Shown in pieces: positions 233 through 16,882 of a stretch of 64,000 bases of DNA; within the stretch, counting starts at the first letter, position 1, and every line of letters starts with the position of its first letter. Origin of the DNA: Weissella fangxianensis (GTDB lineage: Bacteria > Bacillota > Bacilli > Lactobacillales > Lactobacillaceae). The translations under genes and the position numbers were made by a program. Below the pieces are notes generated by a model. The model ran no database searches, was not told where the DNA came from, and saw only the letters and a list, made by a program, of their open reading frames with translations. The DNA lies in contig NZ_JAMXDB010000006.1 in the NCBI RefSeq assembly GCF_024718545.1, positions 1 through 64,000 on the forward strand, in the 5' to 3' direction.

Positions 233-1138
233 TTAATTAAAATTATGGCTTTTATTTGCTAGGTGCAGTGTTTCCATCACTAATTCTAATTCTTTATCAT
301 TTGTTTGATACGCATCAAGAAATTCTTGATGGTATAGTATGCCCGCTAATGCACCCACAAGTGGCATAATGCGCTCTGACTCGCCTGGTAAAGTTTTTGT
401 AAGTGATATTGCACTTTCAAAGCTTGTACTATTTAGTATAACCCAAATAGTCGCTTCTAGTGTATCAACAACATAACCTGATGTGCGCAATGAATTGGCA
501 GACTCGCTCTTTAAGTCAGGTTTATTAAGAGCTTGGAATGCTGGTAAAAATTGAGCAAAGATTTGATGCTGTGAGTAATATTCATATGAACTACTGACAG
601 CTAGATCCACTGCTTCAATAAGTGGCATATTTTGTAACAAATTATTGACAAGCATCGCATATAAGCCACTGGCAATTAGTGACTGGGGATGATTATGGGT
701 CAAACCAGTGATTTGGTGTAACATTAACATCGCTGGTGCATGAGAGGCAAAGTCTTCACCGTACTGTGCCCGTAAGTATAGTACGACGGGGGTAATGTGC
801 ATTAATGCACCGTTACCATTGTCTGACATTTCACGTCCCCCTGAATTAAAGGGGTCACTTGTCCGTTCATACTTATCTAACGCAAATGTTGTTGTACTAC
901 CGACTGCGATTGGTTTTTCAGCGTGATTAGTGTATTCACCAGACTGATACCAACTCAGATACCGATCCATCATGTCAGTTAGATTATATCCATATGATAA
1001 ACTGCTGATTGTTGCTAAAGTTAAAGCGGAGTCTCCACTCCATGATGTTCGCTTACCATCAACTTGCCGTTGTGCTATTAAATCACCAGTAACTAAACCT
1101 AGTGTACTGTTATTTAGTGGACTATACGGTAAAACCAT
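233..1138 (-). CDS. ADP-ribosylglycohydrolase (DraG/ARH) family protein with altered metal ligands
   Basis: The fold family is recognisable from LGLVTGDLIA near the N-terminus, WSGDSALTL, NGNGALMH, THNHP and the C-terminal SGYVVDTLEA followed by GALAGILY. ADP-ribosylglycohydrolases remove ADP-ribose from proteins or small molecules using two Mg ions. The ions are held by a T-D-D motif and a C-terminal D-x-D-T motif. Here those motifs read WSGDS and PGESER, so the usual ligands are largely replaced. The protein may be catalytically dead, bind ligand only, or belong to a divergent subfamily. The ATG at 1138 is chosen because GGATGGAG lies 6 nt upstream of it; the ATG at 1150 sits inside that ribosome site. 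It is transcribed alone and ends at a terminator. The family is fairly sure; the activity is not. Confidence 0.75.
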   Translation of the reverse strand: MVLPYSPLNNSTLGLVTGDLIAQRQVDGKRTSWSGDSALTLATISSLSYGYNLTDMMDRYLSWYQSGEYTNHAEKPIAVGSTTTFALDKYERTSDPFNSGGREMSDNGNGALMHITPVVLYLRAQYGEDFASHAPAMLMLHQITGLTHNHPQSLIASGLYAMLVNNLLQNMPLIEAVDLAVSSSYEYYSQHQIFAQFLPAFQALNKPDLKSESANSLRTSGYVVDTLEATIWVILNSTSFESAISLTKTLPGESERIMPLVGALAGILYHQEFLDAYQTNDKELELVMETLHLANKSHNFN

Positions 1139-1187
1139 GTAAAACTCCATCCTTTCAAGAACATAATTGTAACACTCATGTAAACTG

Positions 1188-1217
1188 TTGGCAAATTAAG
1201 CTGGAATACACTATAAT
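1188..1217 (+). promoter_or_regulatory. Promoter of the yslB-like gene
   Basis: TTGGCA (1188-1193), an 18-nt spacer and TATAAT (1212-1217) lie just upstream of AAAAGGAG and the ATG at 1246. Confidence 0.65.
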
Positions 1218-1245: not shown

Positions 1246-1671
1246 ATGACAGAATCACGACAAGTCCAGGAATTTGACATCTTTTCACTAGTATTATTAC
1301 GCGATCATCTATTACCTGAATTATTACAAGAGGACCAATCTGAGATTACATATTGGGCCGGCAAATCAATTGCAAGCGAGTTTCAACTCGCAGGAATTAA
1401 TGAAATTCAAAATTTCTTCATGTCAGCGGGATTTGGTTATCTTACCAATACTGATCAAAAATCGTCTGAGCAAAAATGGTTACTAAATGGTCCTGTTATT
1501 GATGAAAGATTGCGTAAGCATCCTAATGCAATTTTTGCACTAGAGGCTGGGTTTTTGGCACAAGCAATTCAGCAATTAACGAATACTGGTGCAGAAGCCC
1601 AATGGGATGCTGGTAAAGATTCAGTTACGATTACCGTTATGACAGAGGAACCTGTCGATATGCCAAATTAA
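1246..1671 (+). CDS. YslB-like DUF2507 family protein
   Basis: This 141-aa soluble protein carries the DUF2507 signature near its N-terminus: LLRDHLLPELL followed by ITYWAGKSIA. The family is widespread in Firmicutes (B. subtilis YslB) and resembles V4R-like small-molecule binding folds. No biochemical role is established. The start has AAAAGGAG seven bases upstream and a good promoter. It forms a single-gene unit ending at a long bidirectional hairpin, convergent with trmB. No membrane segments or signal peptide are visible. Confidence 0.8.
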   Translation: MTESRQVQEFDIFSLVLLRDHLLPELLQEDQSEITYWAGKSIASEFQLAGINEIQNFFMSAGFGYLTNTDQKSSEQKWLLNGPVIDERLRKHPNAIFALEAGFLAQAIQQLTNTGAEAQWDAGKDSVTITVMTEEPVDMPN

Positions 1672-1747: not shown

Positions 1748-2410
1748 TTATTTAAATGAACCAACAAATTTGTAAATTGGGTACCCTTGAGATGCAAATT
1801 TATGTTCATATTCGGTTTCGACATTGTCAGCCATCTTATCGTCATCTTCATGTAAGTTTAAAGATATACTGGTTGGCTCAAAACGAATACCAAAGTTAGC
1901 GAAGGAATAAAGTGAATATTCAAAAAGTCCTCGATTGTCGGTCTTGAATTCAACTTCACCGCCTTCAGGGAGTACAGCTTGATAGCTTTTTAGGAATGAT
2001 TTATACGTGAGACGTCGCGATTCGTGACGTTTTTTTGGCCAAGGATCAGAAAAATTCAAAAATAGCTTGCTGACTTCACCCTTAGTAAAGTAAGTATCTA
2101 CTCCCGCACCATCACCATAGATAAATTTTAAGTTTGGCAATAATGCTTCATCTTCATCCGCTTTTCGACCAGCAACGGCTATTGCAGCTTCCTGAATTTC
2201 CATACCAATGAAATTAATTTCTGGGTATTTTTTGGCCATACCGATAATGAATTGCCCCTTACCAGTACCAATTTCAATTTGCAAAGGCTGTTCTTTTTCA
2301 AAAACGCTTTGCCAATTACCCTTTAATGAGACAGCTCGGTCTTGATTGATCACGAGATCTGTATGACTTTCTAACCATGGTTGTGCCCATTTTTTATTTC
2401 TTAAACGCAC
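1748..2410 (-). CDS. trmB: tRNA (guanine-N7-)-methyltransferase
   Basis: TrmB makes m7G46 in the variable loop of tRNAs using S-adenosylmethionine. The 220-aa protein has the Rossmann SAM motif EIGTGKGQF near residue 45, the acidic loop YGDGAGVD, and the TrmB hallmark DPWPKKRHESRR used in tRNA and SAM binding. Length is normal. Its start overlaps the end of ecsB by 17 bp, so it is the last gene of an ecsA-ecsB-trmB unit on the minus strand. This linkage is common in lactic acid bacteria. Confidence 0.95.
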   Translation of the reverse strand: MRLRNKKWAQPWLESHTDLVINQDRAVSLKGNWQSVFEKEQPLQIEIGTGKGQFIIGMAKKYPEINFIGMEIQEAAIAVAGRKADEDEALLPNLKFIYGDGAGVDTYFTKGEVSKLFLNFSDPWPKKRHESRRLTYKSFLKSYQAVLPEGGEVEFKTDNRGLFEYSLYSFANFGIRFEPTSISLNLHEDDDKMADNVETEYEHKFASQGYPIYKFVGSFK

Positions 2411-3509
2411 GAGTAATTCTCCTTTGTGTGCTTTTATTTATTTTTTGTTTCGTATACAAGAATACCAAAACGCCCCCTATGACGACAAGGCAAATTAGGT
2501 TTTGTAACAACAAATTAATGCTAGTAGTAGCCACAAATGCAATGATTAGCCAGATTAACTGGGTTATCACTAGCCATGGTAAGATGGCGTACTGAAATGC
2601 TTGTATGCGTTGGCGGCTTGTGATTGGATATAGAAAGTTAAAGACGATATGTTGGTGCAGATTGCTTAGTGGCATTAACTGTAACACTAGTAAATAAAAC
2701 AATATTATCAATAGAATTGTTTGTAGCCACCCCGTAGTGAACCAGGCAGCCAGGCTACCGAAAATAGTCAGACGGAACCATAGTTTAACATATTGTGTTC
2801 GGCGGATAAATGCTGTGACATAGAGAGTAGTCAGTGGATTACGACTATGTCTGCCCCAAACTTTAATGAATGAATCAGCCCAAGATTGCCGCTTAATTTT
2901 TGGTGTAATTCCTGGTACATCAATAAATAGATTATAAAATGATAAGACGATGAACTGATGATTTTCTTCTGTCGTAACCAGATGACGCCAATTGATTAAT
3001 TTTGAACCCTTTGCATCTGGAAATAGACGCTGCTTACTTGCAATAATATAGGTAAGCAATATTTTTAATGCAATTAAAATCACAGTTGAAATTAAAATTA
3101 ACGTTAGTGAATTTGTGAGTAAGTGAAACATCATCGGCCACAATGCGACTAACAAAATCCCTTCAACGATACCATTAACAATCATACTATATATTGTTGC
3201 TTGTTTTAGTAGCGTACGTAGAACCGTTTCGTCTCCTAGTAAGGCCGTTGGATCTGCCTGTTTGATGAAATTGGTTGGGTTTTTGAAAAAAATGAAGGTC
3301 ACTAAAATAACAATAAGCAGTATGCTTTTGGTCCACATATTGATAGGTGCATTTTGCCATAGTGATTGATACGCTAGACCGCCTGCTCCTGCTAAAATAA
3401 ACAATGCTAATACAGCATGGTCATTAAAAACATATCTGAGGTATTTGAGATACTGTTGCCACCTCTTCGCAATGCGATCTTTAAATAGATGAGTTAATTT
3501 CATTGACAT
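2394..3509 (-). CDS. ecsB: ABC transporter permease EcsB
   Basis: This 371-aa polytopic membrane protein has about eight to ten hydrophobic segments. They include clusters around residues 33-50, 60-75, 108-150, 245-285 and 310-355. It is preceded directly by an EcsA-like ATPase and ends in a basic tail, as EcsB proteins do. EcsAB is a type of ABC transporter whose loss in Bacillus and Staphylococcus affects secretion, intramembrane proteolysis by RasP and competence. The transported substrate is not firmly known. The start codon coincides with the last bases of ecsA, indicating translational coupling. Confidence 0.9.
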   Translation of the reverse strand: MSMKLTHLFKDRIAKRWQQYLKYLRYVFNDHAVLALFILAGAGGLAYQSLWQNAPINMWTKSILLIVILVTFIFFKNPTNFIKQADPTALLGDETVLRTLLKQATIYSMIVNGIVEGILLVALWPMMFHLLTNSLTLILISTVILIALKILLTYIIASKQRLFPDAKGSKLINWRHLVTTEENHQFIVLSFYNLFIDVPGITPKIKRQSWADSFIKVWGRHSRNPLTTLYVTAFIRRTQYVKLWFRLTIFGSLAAWFTTGWLQTILLIILFYLLVLQLMPLSNLHQHIVFNFLYPITSRQRIQAFQYAILPWLVITQLIWLIIAFVATTSINLLLQNLICLVVIGGVLVFLYTKQKINKSTQRRITRAFKK

Positions 3510-4207
3510 TATTCCTTACTTACGGCTAATTCTGGTACGAGTTTCGTAAATTCACTTGCTGCACCTGCAGCAGCTACTTCGCCATCCTTAAGATAGACAA
3601 ATTGATCAGCATGACCTGCGATCGTGTCTAAAACATGTGTCGTAAGTAAAAAACTAGTCCCTTCTTTTTTTCGACTATCAATTAATTTTAATAAATCATT
3701 GACGGCAATGACATCCAAACCTAAAAATGGTTCATCAATGATGAATAATTTTGCATCTGTAATAAAAGCCATGACAATCATTACTTTTTGACGCATACCT
3801 TTTGAGAAATGCGTTGGGAACCATGTTAATTTATCGTTCAGTCGAAAGGTGTTTAACAGCTCTTCGGCCCTTTGCCAAGCAATTTTTTCATCTAAATGAT
3901 AAGCAGCAATTGTTAATTCAAGATGTTCTTTTAAGGTGAGTTCTTCATATACGACTGGTTGCTCAGGGATGTATGCAAGTTGTGATTTATAGGTAACAGG
4001 CTCTTGGTTCAATAGCAAATTATTGAGGATAATACTACCCTGCTTCGGTTGTAGTAGCCCAATAATATGATTGATCGTTGTTGATTTTCCAGAGCCATTT
4101 AGACCGACTAAGGCAGTCAATGTACCATCGGGAACGGTAAATGAAATGTCCTTCAAAACGGTTAGTTTGCCATATCCGCCAGATAAGTTTTTAATTTCTA
4201 AGCTCAT
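3509..4207 (-). CDS. ecsA: ABC transporter ATP-binding protein EcsA
   Basis: This 232-aa ABC ATPase has Walker A GLNGSGKST (about residues 35-43), a Q-loop region, the signature SKGMRQK, Walker B LFIIDEP and the switch H in LLTTHV. The SKGMRQK form of the signature and the immediate ecsB neighbour point to EcsA rather than a generic drug exporter. It is the first gene of the ecsA-ecsB-trmB unit and diverges from hit, as in Bacillus, Staphylococcus and lactobacilli. Confidence 0.92.
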   Translation of the reverse strand: MSLEIKNLSGGYGKLTVLKDISFTVPDGTLTALVGLNGSGKSTTINHIIGLLQPKQGSIILNNLLLNQEPVTYKSQLAYIPEQPVVYEELTLKEHLELTIAAYHLDEKIAWQRAEELLNTFRLNDKLTWFPTHFSKGMRQKVMIVMAFITDAKLFIIDEPFLGLDVIAVNDLLKLIDSRKKEGTSFLLTTHVLDTIAGHADQFVYLKDGEVAAAGAASEFTKLVPELAVSKE

Positions 4208-5200: not shown

Positions 5201-5247
5201 TTTAGAATAAATATGCACATTTTTTAATGTGAAGTGAGGTTTTTTTG

Positions 5248-6713
5248 ATGAATCAGAAAGATAGCGCCTCATTTTTCGGTCAACCACGAGGCTTAATGAC
5301 TTTGTTCTTTACTGAAATGTGGGAGCGCTTTTCATATTACGGTATGCGAGCCATACTGTTATTTTATATGATATACGCTGCTGATAAAGGTGGCCTAGGA
5401 TTTAACGCGGTAACTGGTGCAGCAATTATGTCCATTTATGGATCGATGGTTTACCTATCAGGTATAATTGGTGGCTATTTGGCAGATCGTATCTTAGGCT
5501 CTTGGCGGACAGTATTTTACGGTGGTGTGCTCATTATGTTTGGTCACATTGCTTTATCAATGCCACTTGGAGCACCAGGCCTCTTTGGTTCTATTGTCCT
5601 AATTACCTTAGGAACAGGATTATTGAAGCCTAATGTTGCTACGATGGTTGGAAATCTTTATGATAAGGATGATGAACGTCGAGACGCAGGATTTCTATTT
5701 ATGTTTTTGGTATTAATTTAGGATCCTTTGTCTCACCTATTTTGGTAGGCTGGTTCCAAGTTAACGTTAACTTTCATGTTGCCTTTTCATTAGCAGCCAT
5801 TGGTATGTTTATTGGTTTAGTTCAATATACGGTTGATGGACGTAAGCATTTAAGTAATGTGTCAAGAAAAGCGCCATCACCATTACAAACTGAAGAAATG
5901 AAATCATTAGGTTGGAAACTTGGCCTGATACTTATTGCAATTATTTTAATCTTATTTACTTTAAAGGTTTCAGATGCATTAAATATTGACTCGATTATTA
6001 ATGTGTTAACTGCTGTGGCTATTTTGGTACCGGTTGTTTACTTTGTCGTCATGCTGACGTCAAGTAAGACAACAAAATTTGAACGTCGTAAAGTCATTGC
6101 TTATATTCCATTGTTTATTGCTGCTATGTTGTTCTGGATTATTGAAGAACAAGGATCAGTTGTTCTGGCACTATTTGCAGCAAATCAAACGGCTCTACAT
6201 GGTATCCCAGCTTCTTGGTTTCAGTCACTAAATCCATTGTTTATTATGCTTTTCACGCCTTTCTTCGTTTGGCTTTGGTCAAAAAAATTACGTGATAAAC
6301 AACCAGCAACTGGCGTAAAATTTGCCTTGGGTCTAGTATTTGCAGGATTATCATACGTATGGATGGCATTCCCAGGAATGCTATTTGGTGTAAACAATCA
6401 TTTCAATCCACTGTGGTTAGTTGCCTCTTGGGCATTAGTTGAAGTTGGAGAGATGCTGATTTCGCCAGTTGGTTTATCAGCATCAGCGAAAATGGCACCA
6501 GTTGCATTCCAAGCGCAAATGTTAACAGTTTGGAATTTATCAGATGCTACTGCACAAGCTGCTAATGCACAATTAGTAAAGCTTTATTCACCTGATACAG
6601 AAGTTGCCTACTTTTTGATCATTGGTTTTATTACTGTGTTGGCTGGTCTTTTGTTATGGGTTGCAACTAAGAAAATAAAAATTTTGAATGATAGTTTAAG
6701 TGCAACTAATTAA
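5248..6713 (+). pseudogene. dtpT: Di-/tripeptide:proton symporter (POT/PTR2 family), frameshifted
   Basis: The N-terminal part (5248-5721) has the POT signatures [16 protein letters not shown] and [15 protein letters not shown]. The C-terminal part (from about 5695) carries the remaining segments, including FWIIEEQGSVV. The parts lie in different frames. Adding one T to the TTT at 5692-5694 restores [14 protein letters not shown], as expected for the family, and gives one protein of about 488 aa. POT carriers take up di- and tripeptides with protons, a main nitrogen source for lactic acid bacteria. The ATG at 5248 has GTGAGG eight bases upstream; the in-frame TTG before it is less likely. It may be a real pseudogene or a homopolymer sequencing error. 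Confidence 0.85.
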
Positions 6714-16491: not shown

Positions 16492-16882
16492 CTGATGTAT
16501 TAGCTGTAAGCCATGTTTTGTTCCAAATAAAAATTGGCAATCTTTATTTGGTGGTAATCATCTATCTCAAACATTTCTGTTTCCCCGACCATCACTTCTT
16601 TTCGCTAGGTCAAGCGCCCCTACCAAAGTTTGGGTTGCCCGCTCGTGGGGTTTACCGCGTTCCATCCATCGCATTTCTTTGATGGTTCGTCACTGTGGCA
16701 CCTTAGCAGCTTACTAAATCATAGATAAAATCCTTAGATCTTTGGCTGGCCATCATTCAAATCATTGAATGCCTAGCCTTATTTTTTCAGCTAGCGCGAA
16801 CACTACTAACATCACAGTTAGTGCGAGCATGGACTTTCCTCATGCAGCATAAGCCACACGCAATCACCCACTAACACATCAC
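16492..16882 (-). ncRNA. rnpB: RNase P RNA, class B
   Basis: This is the catalytic RNA of RNase P, which matures tRNA 5' ends. On the minus strand the near-invariant GAGGAAAGTCCATGCTCGCA lies at 16824-16843, and the conserved 3' block AACAAAACATGGCTTACAG at 16506-16524. The ends pair as helix P1: TGATGTGTTAG (16871-16881) with CTAATACATCA (16493-16503). Length is about 390 nt, right for a Bacillus-type (class B) RNA. It sits between gpsB and the THUMP methyltransferase, its standard place. Ends are set from P1 pairing and may be off by a few bases. Confidence 0.95.

What the first reader, a model, noticed from the sequence alone, without database searches (positions are those of the whole stretch)
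233..1138. ADP-ribosylglycohydrolase-like protein with replaced catalytic metal ligands
Seen: the TDD-type motif reads SGD and the C-terminal GGDTDT-type motif reads PGESER, while fold-defining motifs (NGALMH, GYVVDTLEA, GALAGILY) are kept. Established: these motifs hold the two Mg ions. Inference: pseudo-enzyme, ADP-ribose reader, or altered chemistry.
Basis: partly seen in the sequence, partly recalled or inferred. Interest (0 to 1): 0.5.

Follow-up and report, generated by a model that had tools for sequence, protein, structure and literature searches.

The report
Core-gene pseudo-ADP-ribosylhydrolase of lactic acid bacteria
A relative of enzymes that remove ADP-ribose tags from proteins has lost its metal-binding reaction centre, yet it is kept under selection in nearly every examined genome of Weissella and of a Leuconostoc-like genus, so it probably now works by binding something rather than by cutting.

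Summary
In detail: the minus-strand ORF (233-1150; start more likely at 1138) is a clear PF03747 ADP-ribosylglycohydrolase-fold protein whose TDD motif reads SGD and whose DTDT motif reads ESER. The Glu-flap segment is also deleted. The replacements are not conserved: across 27 orthologues in the genus the ligand positions drift, and in two further genera plus one genome of a third they are replaced differently. None of 53 such proteins keeps all four metal-binding aspartates, against 38 of 40 class controls and 12 of 12 canonical paralogues in the genus. So this is loss of the metal site, not a swapped one. It is not decay: 27 of 28 genomes of the genus and 19 of 19 of genus g17 (Leuconostoc-like) carry it, dN/dS is well below 1 (mostly 0.05-0.11), and new invariant residues (M141, N209, P211, D212) have appeared. 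In the window's genus it lies head-to-head with a DUF2507 (YslB) gene in 27 of 27, sharing a conserved bidirectional promoter. Best reading: an ancient bacterial pseudo-ARH that acts by protein binding, a parallel to vertebrate ARH2. The partner is unknown, and a metal-free ADP-ribose-binding role is not excluded.

The parts
233..1150 (-). pseudo-ADP-ribosylglycohydrolase ORF (305 aa from the first ATG; 301 aa from the likely start at 1138)
   Evidence: ORF; PF03747; model pLDDT 88.4, Z 37.4 to 8za7
1031..1039 (-). SGD in place of the TDD/SDD metal motif (residues 38-40)
371..388 (-). PGESER in place of the GxDxDT metal motif (residues 255-260)
1043..1081 (-). shortened segment (residues 24-36) where canonical homologues carry the Glu-flap (GxPYE/Q) segment
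   Evidence: alignment gap in 27 of 27 orthologues of the genus
692..733 (-). AMLMLHQITGLTHN (residues 140-153), conserved in the ligand-less clade; M141 and N153 are nearly absent from the 31 canonical rows compared
515..580 (-). YYSQHQIFAQFLPAFQALNKPD (residues 191-212); N209, P211 and D212 kept in the genus, in g17/g8 and in g29, rare or absent in canonical rows
1166..1217 (.). bidirectional promoter: overlapping -35 hexamers in TTGGCAA/TTGCCAA (1188-1194), -10 TATAAT for DUF2507 (+) and TGTTACAAT for the pseudo-ARH (-)
1246..1671 (+). DUF2507 (YslB-like) gene, head-to-head neighbour in 27 of 27 orthologues of the genus
   Evidence: Pfam; synteny; PDB relative 3njc

Best explanation
It is a non-catalytic member of the ADP-ribosylglycohydrolase fold. 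Shown here: the fold is predicted to be kept; the two-metal centre and Glu flap are gone in the whole clade; the replacements are not conserved; the gene is a core gene under purifying selection; new clade-specific invariant residues have arisen; and in the window's genus it is always found head-to-head with DUF2507 across a conserved divergent promoter. Inferred: one loss of catalysis in a common ancestor of Weissella and the genera coded g17, g8 and g29. Inferred, less sure: the protein now acts by binding another protein, as a scaffold or regulator, using the conserved AMLxLHxxxxxTHN and YYxxHxxFxxxLxxFxxLNxPD stretches, with DUF2507 as the first candidate partner in Weissella.
For: Ligand census: 0 of 53 proteins of the clade keep all four Asp, against 12 of 12 canonical paralogues of the genus, 20 of 23 proteins of other Lactobacillaceae genera and 38 of 40 class controls. 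Glu-flap segment a gap in 27 of 27 of the genus. Present in 27 of 28 genomes of the genus and 19 of 19 of g17. dN/dS in the nine pairs of the genus with dS under 1.1: seven 0.051-0.107, two 0.006-0.010. Tree: the clade is one side of a branch, 100/99*, and 100/92* with the motif columns removed. Model pLDDT 88.4, pTM 0.90; Z 37.4 to 8za7, 28-29 to ARH3 and DraG. DUF2507 head-to-head in 27 of 27; promoter kept in 26 of 27 by strict pattern, the last in variant form. New invariants M141, N209, P211, D212.
Against: No binding partner was shown, and the neighbourhood differs between genera (DUF2507 in Weissella; a PBP in g29 and g8; metK in g17), so no single partner follows from synteny. The query keeps S38 and D40 and has two conservative D-to-E changes, so a weak metal site in this species cannot be excluded from sequence; PDB titles show single ARH3 mutants (D77A, D314A, D314E) still binding Mg and ADP-ribose. 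dN/dS of the clade is mostly two- to threefold that of the canonical paralogues (mostly 0.022-0.035), so constraint is somewhat relaxed. Long branches meet in both trees. The model's coordinates could not be inspected.
Confidence: 0.67

Rival explanations
1. ADP-ribose or nucleotide reader: the pocket still binds ADP-ribose or NAD-like ligands, without the full metal pair, and transmits the signal.
For: In the window's genus the DNGNGALxR loop and THN stay partly conserved. PDB titles list ARH3 D77A and D314A, each bound to magnesium and ADP-ribose (7l9h, 7l9i), so losing one Asp need not abolish binding. A SIR2 homologue is in the genome.
Against: Several ligands are lost at once here, not one. 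The loop is not kept in g17 (ADSENILVR) or g29 (NDENVLIR). A review says both metals are needed for correct substrate positioning (PMC7050489 section 22). No Macro domain was found in the genome. The one ART family tried (PF03496) gave no match, but no control genome rang either, so that shows nothing.
Confidence: 0.16
2. Altered metal chemistry: E257, E259, S38 and D40, or other conserved His/Asp (H145, H152, D99, D212), form a new metal site and the protein is an enzyme of changed specificity.
For: D-to-E changes are conservative in the query. PDB holds an ARH3 D314E structure with ADP-ribose and magnesium bound (6d3a). H145 and D212 are conserved across the clade.
Against: At the D314 place the 27 proteins of the genus carry nine different residues (E in 12, D in 5) and at the D316 place eight, never D; g17 carries A/S/V and S/N/H there. 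The Glu flap is deleted. A metal site that defines the function should be conserved.
Confidence: 0.08
3. Immunity by occlusion: it blocks ADP-ribosyltransferase toxins of competitors by binding them, as some ARH immunity proteins are said to do besides hydrolysis.
For: The closest solved relative by sequence and fold is Lmo0067 of a Listeria ART-ARH effector-immunity pair; the Serratia Tri1 structures are also near. That Tri1 also acts by occlusion, and that it is from Serratia, is recalled, not looked up.
Against: Core-gene distribution and purifying selection are unlike immunity genes. None of the neighbours I named is an ART, but most genes downstream were not identified.
Confidence: 0.07
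4. Decaying pseudogene of an ADP-ribosylhydrolase.
For: Catalytic motifs are lost; one of 28 genomes of the genus (G236) lacks the gene; dN/dS is higher than in the canonical paralogues.
Against: No stop inside any of the 27 places of the genus or the 19 of g17; dN/dS far below 1; presence in 19 of 19 g17 genomes; conserved promoter; new invariant residues.
Confidence: 0.02

Closest known systems
Vertebrate ARH2 (ADPRHL1), a pseudoenzyme of the ARH family
   Same: ARH family member with altered metal-ligand residues and no detected hydrolase activity (PMC9738213, passages; PMC7390403 and PMC10601310, starts of abstracts in a listing)
   Different: Animal protein tied to heart muscle; its kinship to this clade was not tested; this clade also lacks the Glu-flap segment and is a bacterial core gene
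Lmo0067 (PDB 8za7), ARH of a Listeria ART-ARH effector-immunity pair
   Same: Nearest solved relative: 30% identity over 290 aligned residues, Z 37.4
   Different: Keeps SDD and GGDTDT motifs; partner of an ART, which was not seen here
Canonical PF03747 paralogue of the same genus (12 of 28 genomes)
   Same: Same family, same genus
   Different: Keeps all six metal ligands in 12 of 12 and E (10) or Q (2) at the flap position; on the other side of the 100/99* branch
DraG and ARH3 hydrolases
   Same: Fold, Z 28-29
   Different: Two-metal enzymes; the ligands are largely absent here
ARH-fold chains in the Ycf2-FtsHi motor (8xqw_G, 8xks_Q) and a trypanosome mt-SSU assemblosome (6sga_FP)
   Same: ARH-like fold as part of a larger assembly, Z 26 and 19
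   Different: Eukaryotic organelles; their own active-site state was not checked here

Membership tests
ADP-ribosylglycohydrolase fold family (PF03747) | Profile match above the curated cut-off | tested here: met
   124.4 bits against 26.2
ADP-ribosylglycohydrolase fold family (PF03747) | Helical ARH fold | tested here: met
   AlphaFold2 model pLDDT 88.4; Z 37.4 (8za7), 28.9 (ARH3 6d36), 28.7 (DraG 2woe); a prediction, not a solved structure
Catalytic ARH/DraG hydrolase | T/S-D-D motif (metal ligands) | tested here: not met
   SGD in the query; D at the D77 position in 0 of 53 clade proteins
Catalytic ARH/DraG hydrolase | D-x-D-T/S C-terminal motif | tested here: not met
   ESER in the query; D at the D316 position in 0 of 53
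Catalytic ARH/DraG hydrolase | Glu-flap glutamate (ARH3 Glu41; of minor effect in DraG) | tested here: not met
   Segment a gap in 27 of 27 of the genus; no E or Q in the aligned column of the other 26, where the alignment is unsure
Catalytic ARH/DraG hydrolase | Hydrolysis of an ADP-ribosyl bond | not testable with these tools
   Needs biochemistry
Tri1 equivalog (NF041672) and DraG equivalog (TIGR02662) | Curated equivalog cut-off | tested here: not met
   79 of 490 bits and 37.4 of 337.05 bits
Pseudoenzyme (ARH2-like state) | Catalytic residues lost while the gene stays under purifying selection | tested here: met
Pseudoenzyme (ARH2-like state) | Non-catalytic cellular role | not testable with these tools
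   Needs genetics

The most novel reading that the evidence does not exclude
An ARH fold was recruited once, in an ancestor of Weissella and the g17 (Leuconostoc-like), g8 and g29 genera, as a non-catalytic housekeeping component, with the gained LNxPD and AMLxLH surfaces as its docking site. This would be a bacterial core-gene counterpart of ARH2, functionally tied to DUF2507 in Weissella.
Probability: 0.35. Interest if true: 0.68.

Novelty: new variant of a known kind. Interest (0 to 1): 0.52.

Why it matters
[quoted passage not shown] A bacterial pseudo-ARH kept as a core gene in food bacteria would be a simple genetic system for what this fold does without catalysis. It also warns annotation pipelines: these proteins score as ADP-ribosylglycohydrolases in Pfam, though they very probably cannot do that reaction. 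The conserved bidirectional promoter gives a first testable link to DUF2507, whose Pfam entry also says function unknown.

Tried and rejected
Altered but conserved metal site: rejected as the leading reading because the replacement residues differ within the genus. Local decay or sequencing error: rejected, as the loss is seen in 27 genomes of the genus (several are close relatives, such as the W. confusa ones, so not all independent), two other genera and one genome of a third. Convergent losses as the cause of the clade: tested by a tree without the motif columns; the ligand-less rows still fall on one side of one branch, 100/92*, though the program warns of long branches. Fourteen of the 88 rows were left out of that tree: eleven near-copies, and L151, L164 and L158 for length. 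Plasmid origin: the protein search of the plasmid collection found 31 records, all under 60% identity; phages were not searched.

Literature: 'ADP-ribosylglycohydrolase' with 'pseudoenzyme', with 'Weissella', and with 'catalytically inactive', 'magnesium' and 'bacteria' gave 0 papers each; with 'Leuconostoc' 1 paper, a Lactobacillus plantarum genome paper of which I saw the listing only. lmo0067 with ADP-ribosyl and ARH3 with D314E and magnesium gave none; the Listeria immunity search gave one paper on zinc macrodomains, listing only. So the statement that this clade was not found in print rests on these searches of an open-access library only.

Searches that led nowhere: the PF03496 ART search rang in no control genome and shows nothing; DUF2507/YslB papers gave only a gene list of polC-co-evolving genes (one passage) and no function. 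Active-site geometry could not be measured, as the tool gives no model coordinates.

Full report
OBSERVATION. The window's first gene is on the minus strand, 233-1150, 305 aa. It matches one Pfam family, PF03747, at 124.4 bits, and lies far below the equivalog cut-offs for Tri1 and DraG. The motifs are as described: SGD at residues 38-40 and PGESER at 255-260. Ligand names follow the ARH3 residues given in PMC9738213 (passages): Glu41, Thr76, Asp77, Asp78, Asp314, Asp316, Thr317. The query has deletion, S, G, D, E, E, R there. The nearest solved protein, Lmo0067 (8za7), keeps SDD and GGDTDT in the printed alignment.

WHO ELSE HAS IT. The genus (code g1) is Weissella: of 19 named loci found, 18 are titled Weissella, among them W. 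thailandensis (97%), W. paramesenteroides (89%), W. hellenica, W. confusa, W. cibaria, W. viridescens, W. halotolerans and W. kandleri, and one is an unnamed Lactobacillaceae bin. In 28 of 28 genomes of the genus PF03747 rings, with 39 matches. Sorting them by alignment gives 27 ligand-less orthologues (all genomes but G236) and 12 canonical paralogues. A second genus, g17, has a ligand-less version in 19 of 19 genomes. I take g17 to be Leuconostoc: the glucose-6-phosphate dehydrogenase of its genome G085 matches 1dpg-type entries over their full length, and that 1dpg is from L. mesenteroides is recalled. A genus g29 (six genomes found, one only 65% complete) and one g8 genome carry it too; how many g29 and g8 genomes lack it was not counted. 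In 395 genomes drawn from the order, matches at E up to 1e-40 fell in 3 genera of 80, all in the same family: g1, g17 and g14, the last with canonical proteins. That threshold is too strict to see g29-type proteins, so the search does not bound the clade.

LOSS, NOT SWAP. In one search I counted all 88 aligned rows. In the 27 proteins of the genus the D77 position is S 16, G 6, A 5; D78 is kept in 18; the D314 position is E 12, D 5, K 2, N 2, P 2, and Q, A, S, T one each; D316 has eight residue types and never D; T317 is R in 15. In 19 g17 proteins none of six ligands is kept. In five of six g29 proteins two are kept (both threonines), in the sixth none. All four aspartates: 0 of 53. Comparison: canonical paralogues of the genus 12 of 12; 23 proteins of other Lactobacillaceae genera, chosen by genus and not by motif, 20 of 23 (L164, in a 1.2 Mb genome, is itself degenerate). 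These 23 are only part of the matches. As a class-wide control I fetched 40 near-full-length matches, most of them every second one down the ranked list, some from one contig (four from G758, three from G802): 38 of 40 keep all four, 33 of 40 all six. The Glu-flap segment is a gap in 27 of 27 of the genus, and the aligned residue is neither E nor Q in the other 26, where the alignment is unsure. Canonical-like motifs at other places: [ST]DD[STGA] in 5 of 53 and DxD[TS] in 7 of 53, around residues 110-117 of some g17 and g29 proteins only, GxDxD in none; 33 of 35 other rows have each of these.

NOT DECAY. dN/dS (NG86, experimental Biopython module; 20 proteins of the genus, 10 canonical, 9 of g17; pairs 70-99.5% identical). 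The nine pairs of the genus with dS under 1.1: window-L045 0.085, window-L003 0.068, L045-L003 0.067, L052-L044 0.051, L052-L004 0.067, L044-L004 0.078, L054-L049 0.107, and two W. confusa pairs 0.006 and 0.010. The highest value of any pair is 0.171, at dS 1.1. g17 pairs with dS under 1: 0.053-0.074. Canonical paralogues are tighter, mostly 0.022-0.035, with two near-identical pairs at 0.07 and 0.19. Many more distant pairs had saturated or undefined dS. So the gene is constrained, somewhat less than its active paralogue. Residues conserved at 85% or more and alike in the genus and in g17/g8, but rare in 31 canonical rows: M141 (0%), N209 (0%), N153 (3%), H195 (3%), D212 (6%), P211 (23%), and others; M141, N209, P211 and D212 are also invariant in the 5 g29 rows used, where H195 is R. 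DraG has THNHP too, so N153 alone is not special.

TREE. 77 rows, IQ-TREE: the 45 ligand-less rows lie on one side of a 100/99* branch. With the flap and both motif stretches removed and 14 of 88 rows left out (74 rows) the split stays, 100/92*, in 100% of 200 bootstrap trees. Both runs warn that long branches meet, and the root is not inferred. Gene order: in 5 of 5 g29 loci examined (the sixth lies on a 3.3 kb contig and was not examined) the gene follows and nearly touches a PBP gene and lies next to RNase J, with a LOG-family gene beyond; in g8 it follows a like PBP (46% to the g29 one) by about 59 nt, but RNase J and LOG were not found in the 13 kb held; in 5 of 5 g17 loci examined it follows metK, with RNase J and LOG some kb away. 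Pfam was run on two of the PBPs and two RNase J. No match to these four genes lies within about 6 kb in the 19 named loci, so orthology between Weissella and the others rests on the tree.

WEISSELLA NEIGHBOURHOOD. In 27 of 27 orthologues the gene lies head-to-head with a DUF2507 gene. TrmB is next to that in 22 of 27; in the other five it is not in the fetched flank, so the pair outlasts its surroundings. Downstream genes differ in the eight loci listed. Between the two genes is a TTGCCAA heptamer that can serve as -35 in both directions, with TGTTACAAT-like 13-14 nt away on the pseudo-ARH side and ATTATA/AGTATA (-10 of the other strand) on the other: 26 of 27 fit the strict pattern, and L010 has the variant TGGTAAAAT. 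A plain promoter scan of this region finds no more sites than shuffles do (7 against 8.9); the evidence is the conservation, and some of the 27 are close relatives. In G236, which lacks the gene, DUF2507 keeps a TTGGCAA upstream and faces a gene that is 48% identical over 299 residues to the one just beyond the pseudo-ARH in L083, which looks like a simple loss. DUF2507 is in 28 of 28 genomes of the genus; its PDB relative is YslB, 3njc.

STRUCTURE. The AlphaFold2 model from 20 aligned sequences has pLDDT 88.4 and pTM 0.90. VIA-align puts 8za7 first (Z 37.4, rmsd 2.2, 290 aligned), then ARH3, Tri1 and DraG at Z 28-29; Foldseek also puts 8za7 first. Eukaryotic assemblies also contain this fold: Ycf2-FtsHi motor, Z 26; mt-SSU assemblosome, Z 19. 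The PDB list also holds ARH3 mutants D77A, D314A and D314E with magnesium and ADP-ribose bound (titles), so a single lost ligand need not stop binding.

MECHANISM. A review says ARH enzymes need both metals to place the distal ribose, and that the flap glutamate is crucial in ARH3 but minor in DraG (PMC7050489 section 22, read whole). With most ligands and the flap gone, hydrolysis by the known mechanism is very unlikely. The fold, selection and new invariants point to binding. I commit to protein binding as scaffold or regulator (0.67 for the whole statement; the non-catalytic part alone about 0.9). The partner is inferred, not shown. No Macro domain was found in the genome; one SIR2 protein is there.

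VERDICT. Observation confirmed and extended; interpretation narrowed to pseudoenzyme. A pseudo-ARH is known in vertebrates; a bacterial, core-gene one was not found in my searches of the paper library. New variant of a known kind.

Noticed in passing
window 5245-6713: A POT-family peptide transporter gene is split into two ORFs (5245-5721 and 5742-6713), while W. thailandensis has one ORF of 489 aa there (L071 481-1950): a frameshift or stop in this strain, or an error in this assembly.
   Followed up: partly
L168 (G236) 2208-3802: The one genome of the genus without the pseudo-ARH: DUF2507 keeps a TTGGCAA upstream and now faces a relative (48%) of the gene that lies beyond the pseudo-ARH in L083.
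   Followed up: partly
L146-L150, L093: In genus g29 (5 of 5 loci examined) and the g8 genome the pseudo-ARH directly follows a penicillin-binding protein gene, nearly touching it in g29 and about 59 nt away in g8, suggesting an operon.
   Followed up: partly
L164 (G363): A second, separate degenerate ARH (WSKETS, FG-DHTV) in a 1.2 Mb genome of genus g14, on the canonical side of the tree; a possible independent loss.
   Followed up: no
L213 (G802:C32:167741-168646): One of four neighbouring PF03747 genes lacks most metal ligands (TYV / LxDS); of the other three, the two examined keep all six.
   Followed up: no
L096 (G269): One g17 genome has, besides its ligand-less protein, a second PF03747 protein with intact TDDT and GGDTDT motifs.
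   Followed up: no
PDB 8xqw_G, 8xks_Q, 6sga_FP: ARH-like folds appear as chains of the plastid Ycf2-FtsHi motor and of a mitochondrial ribosome assembly intermediate.
   Followed up: no
window 16502-16875: Class B RNase P RNA gene on the minus strand, ordinary.
   Followed up: no
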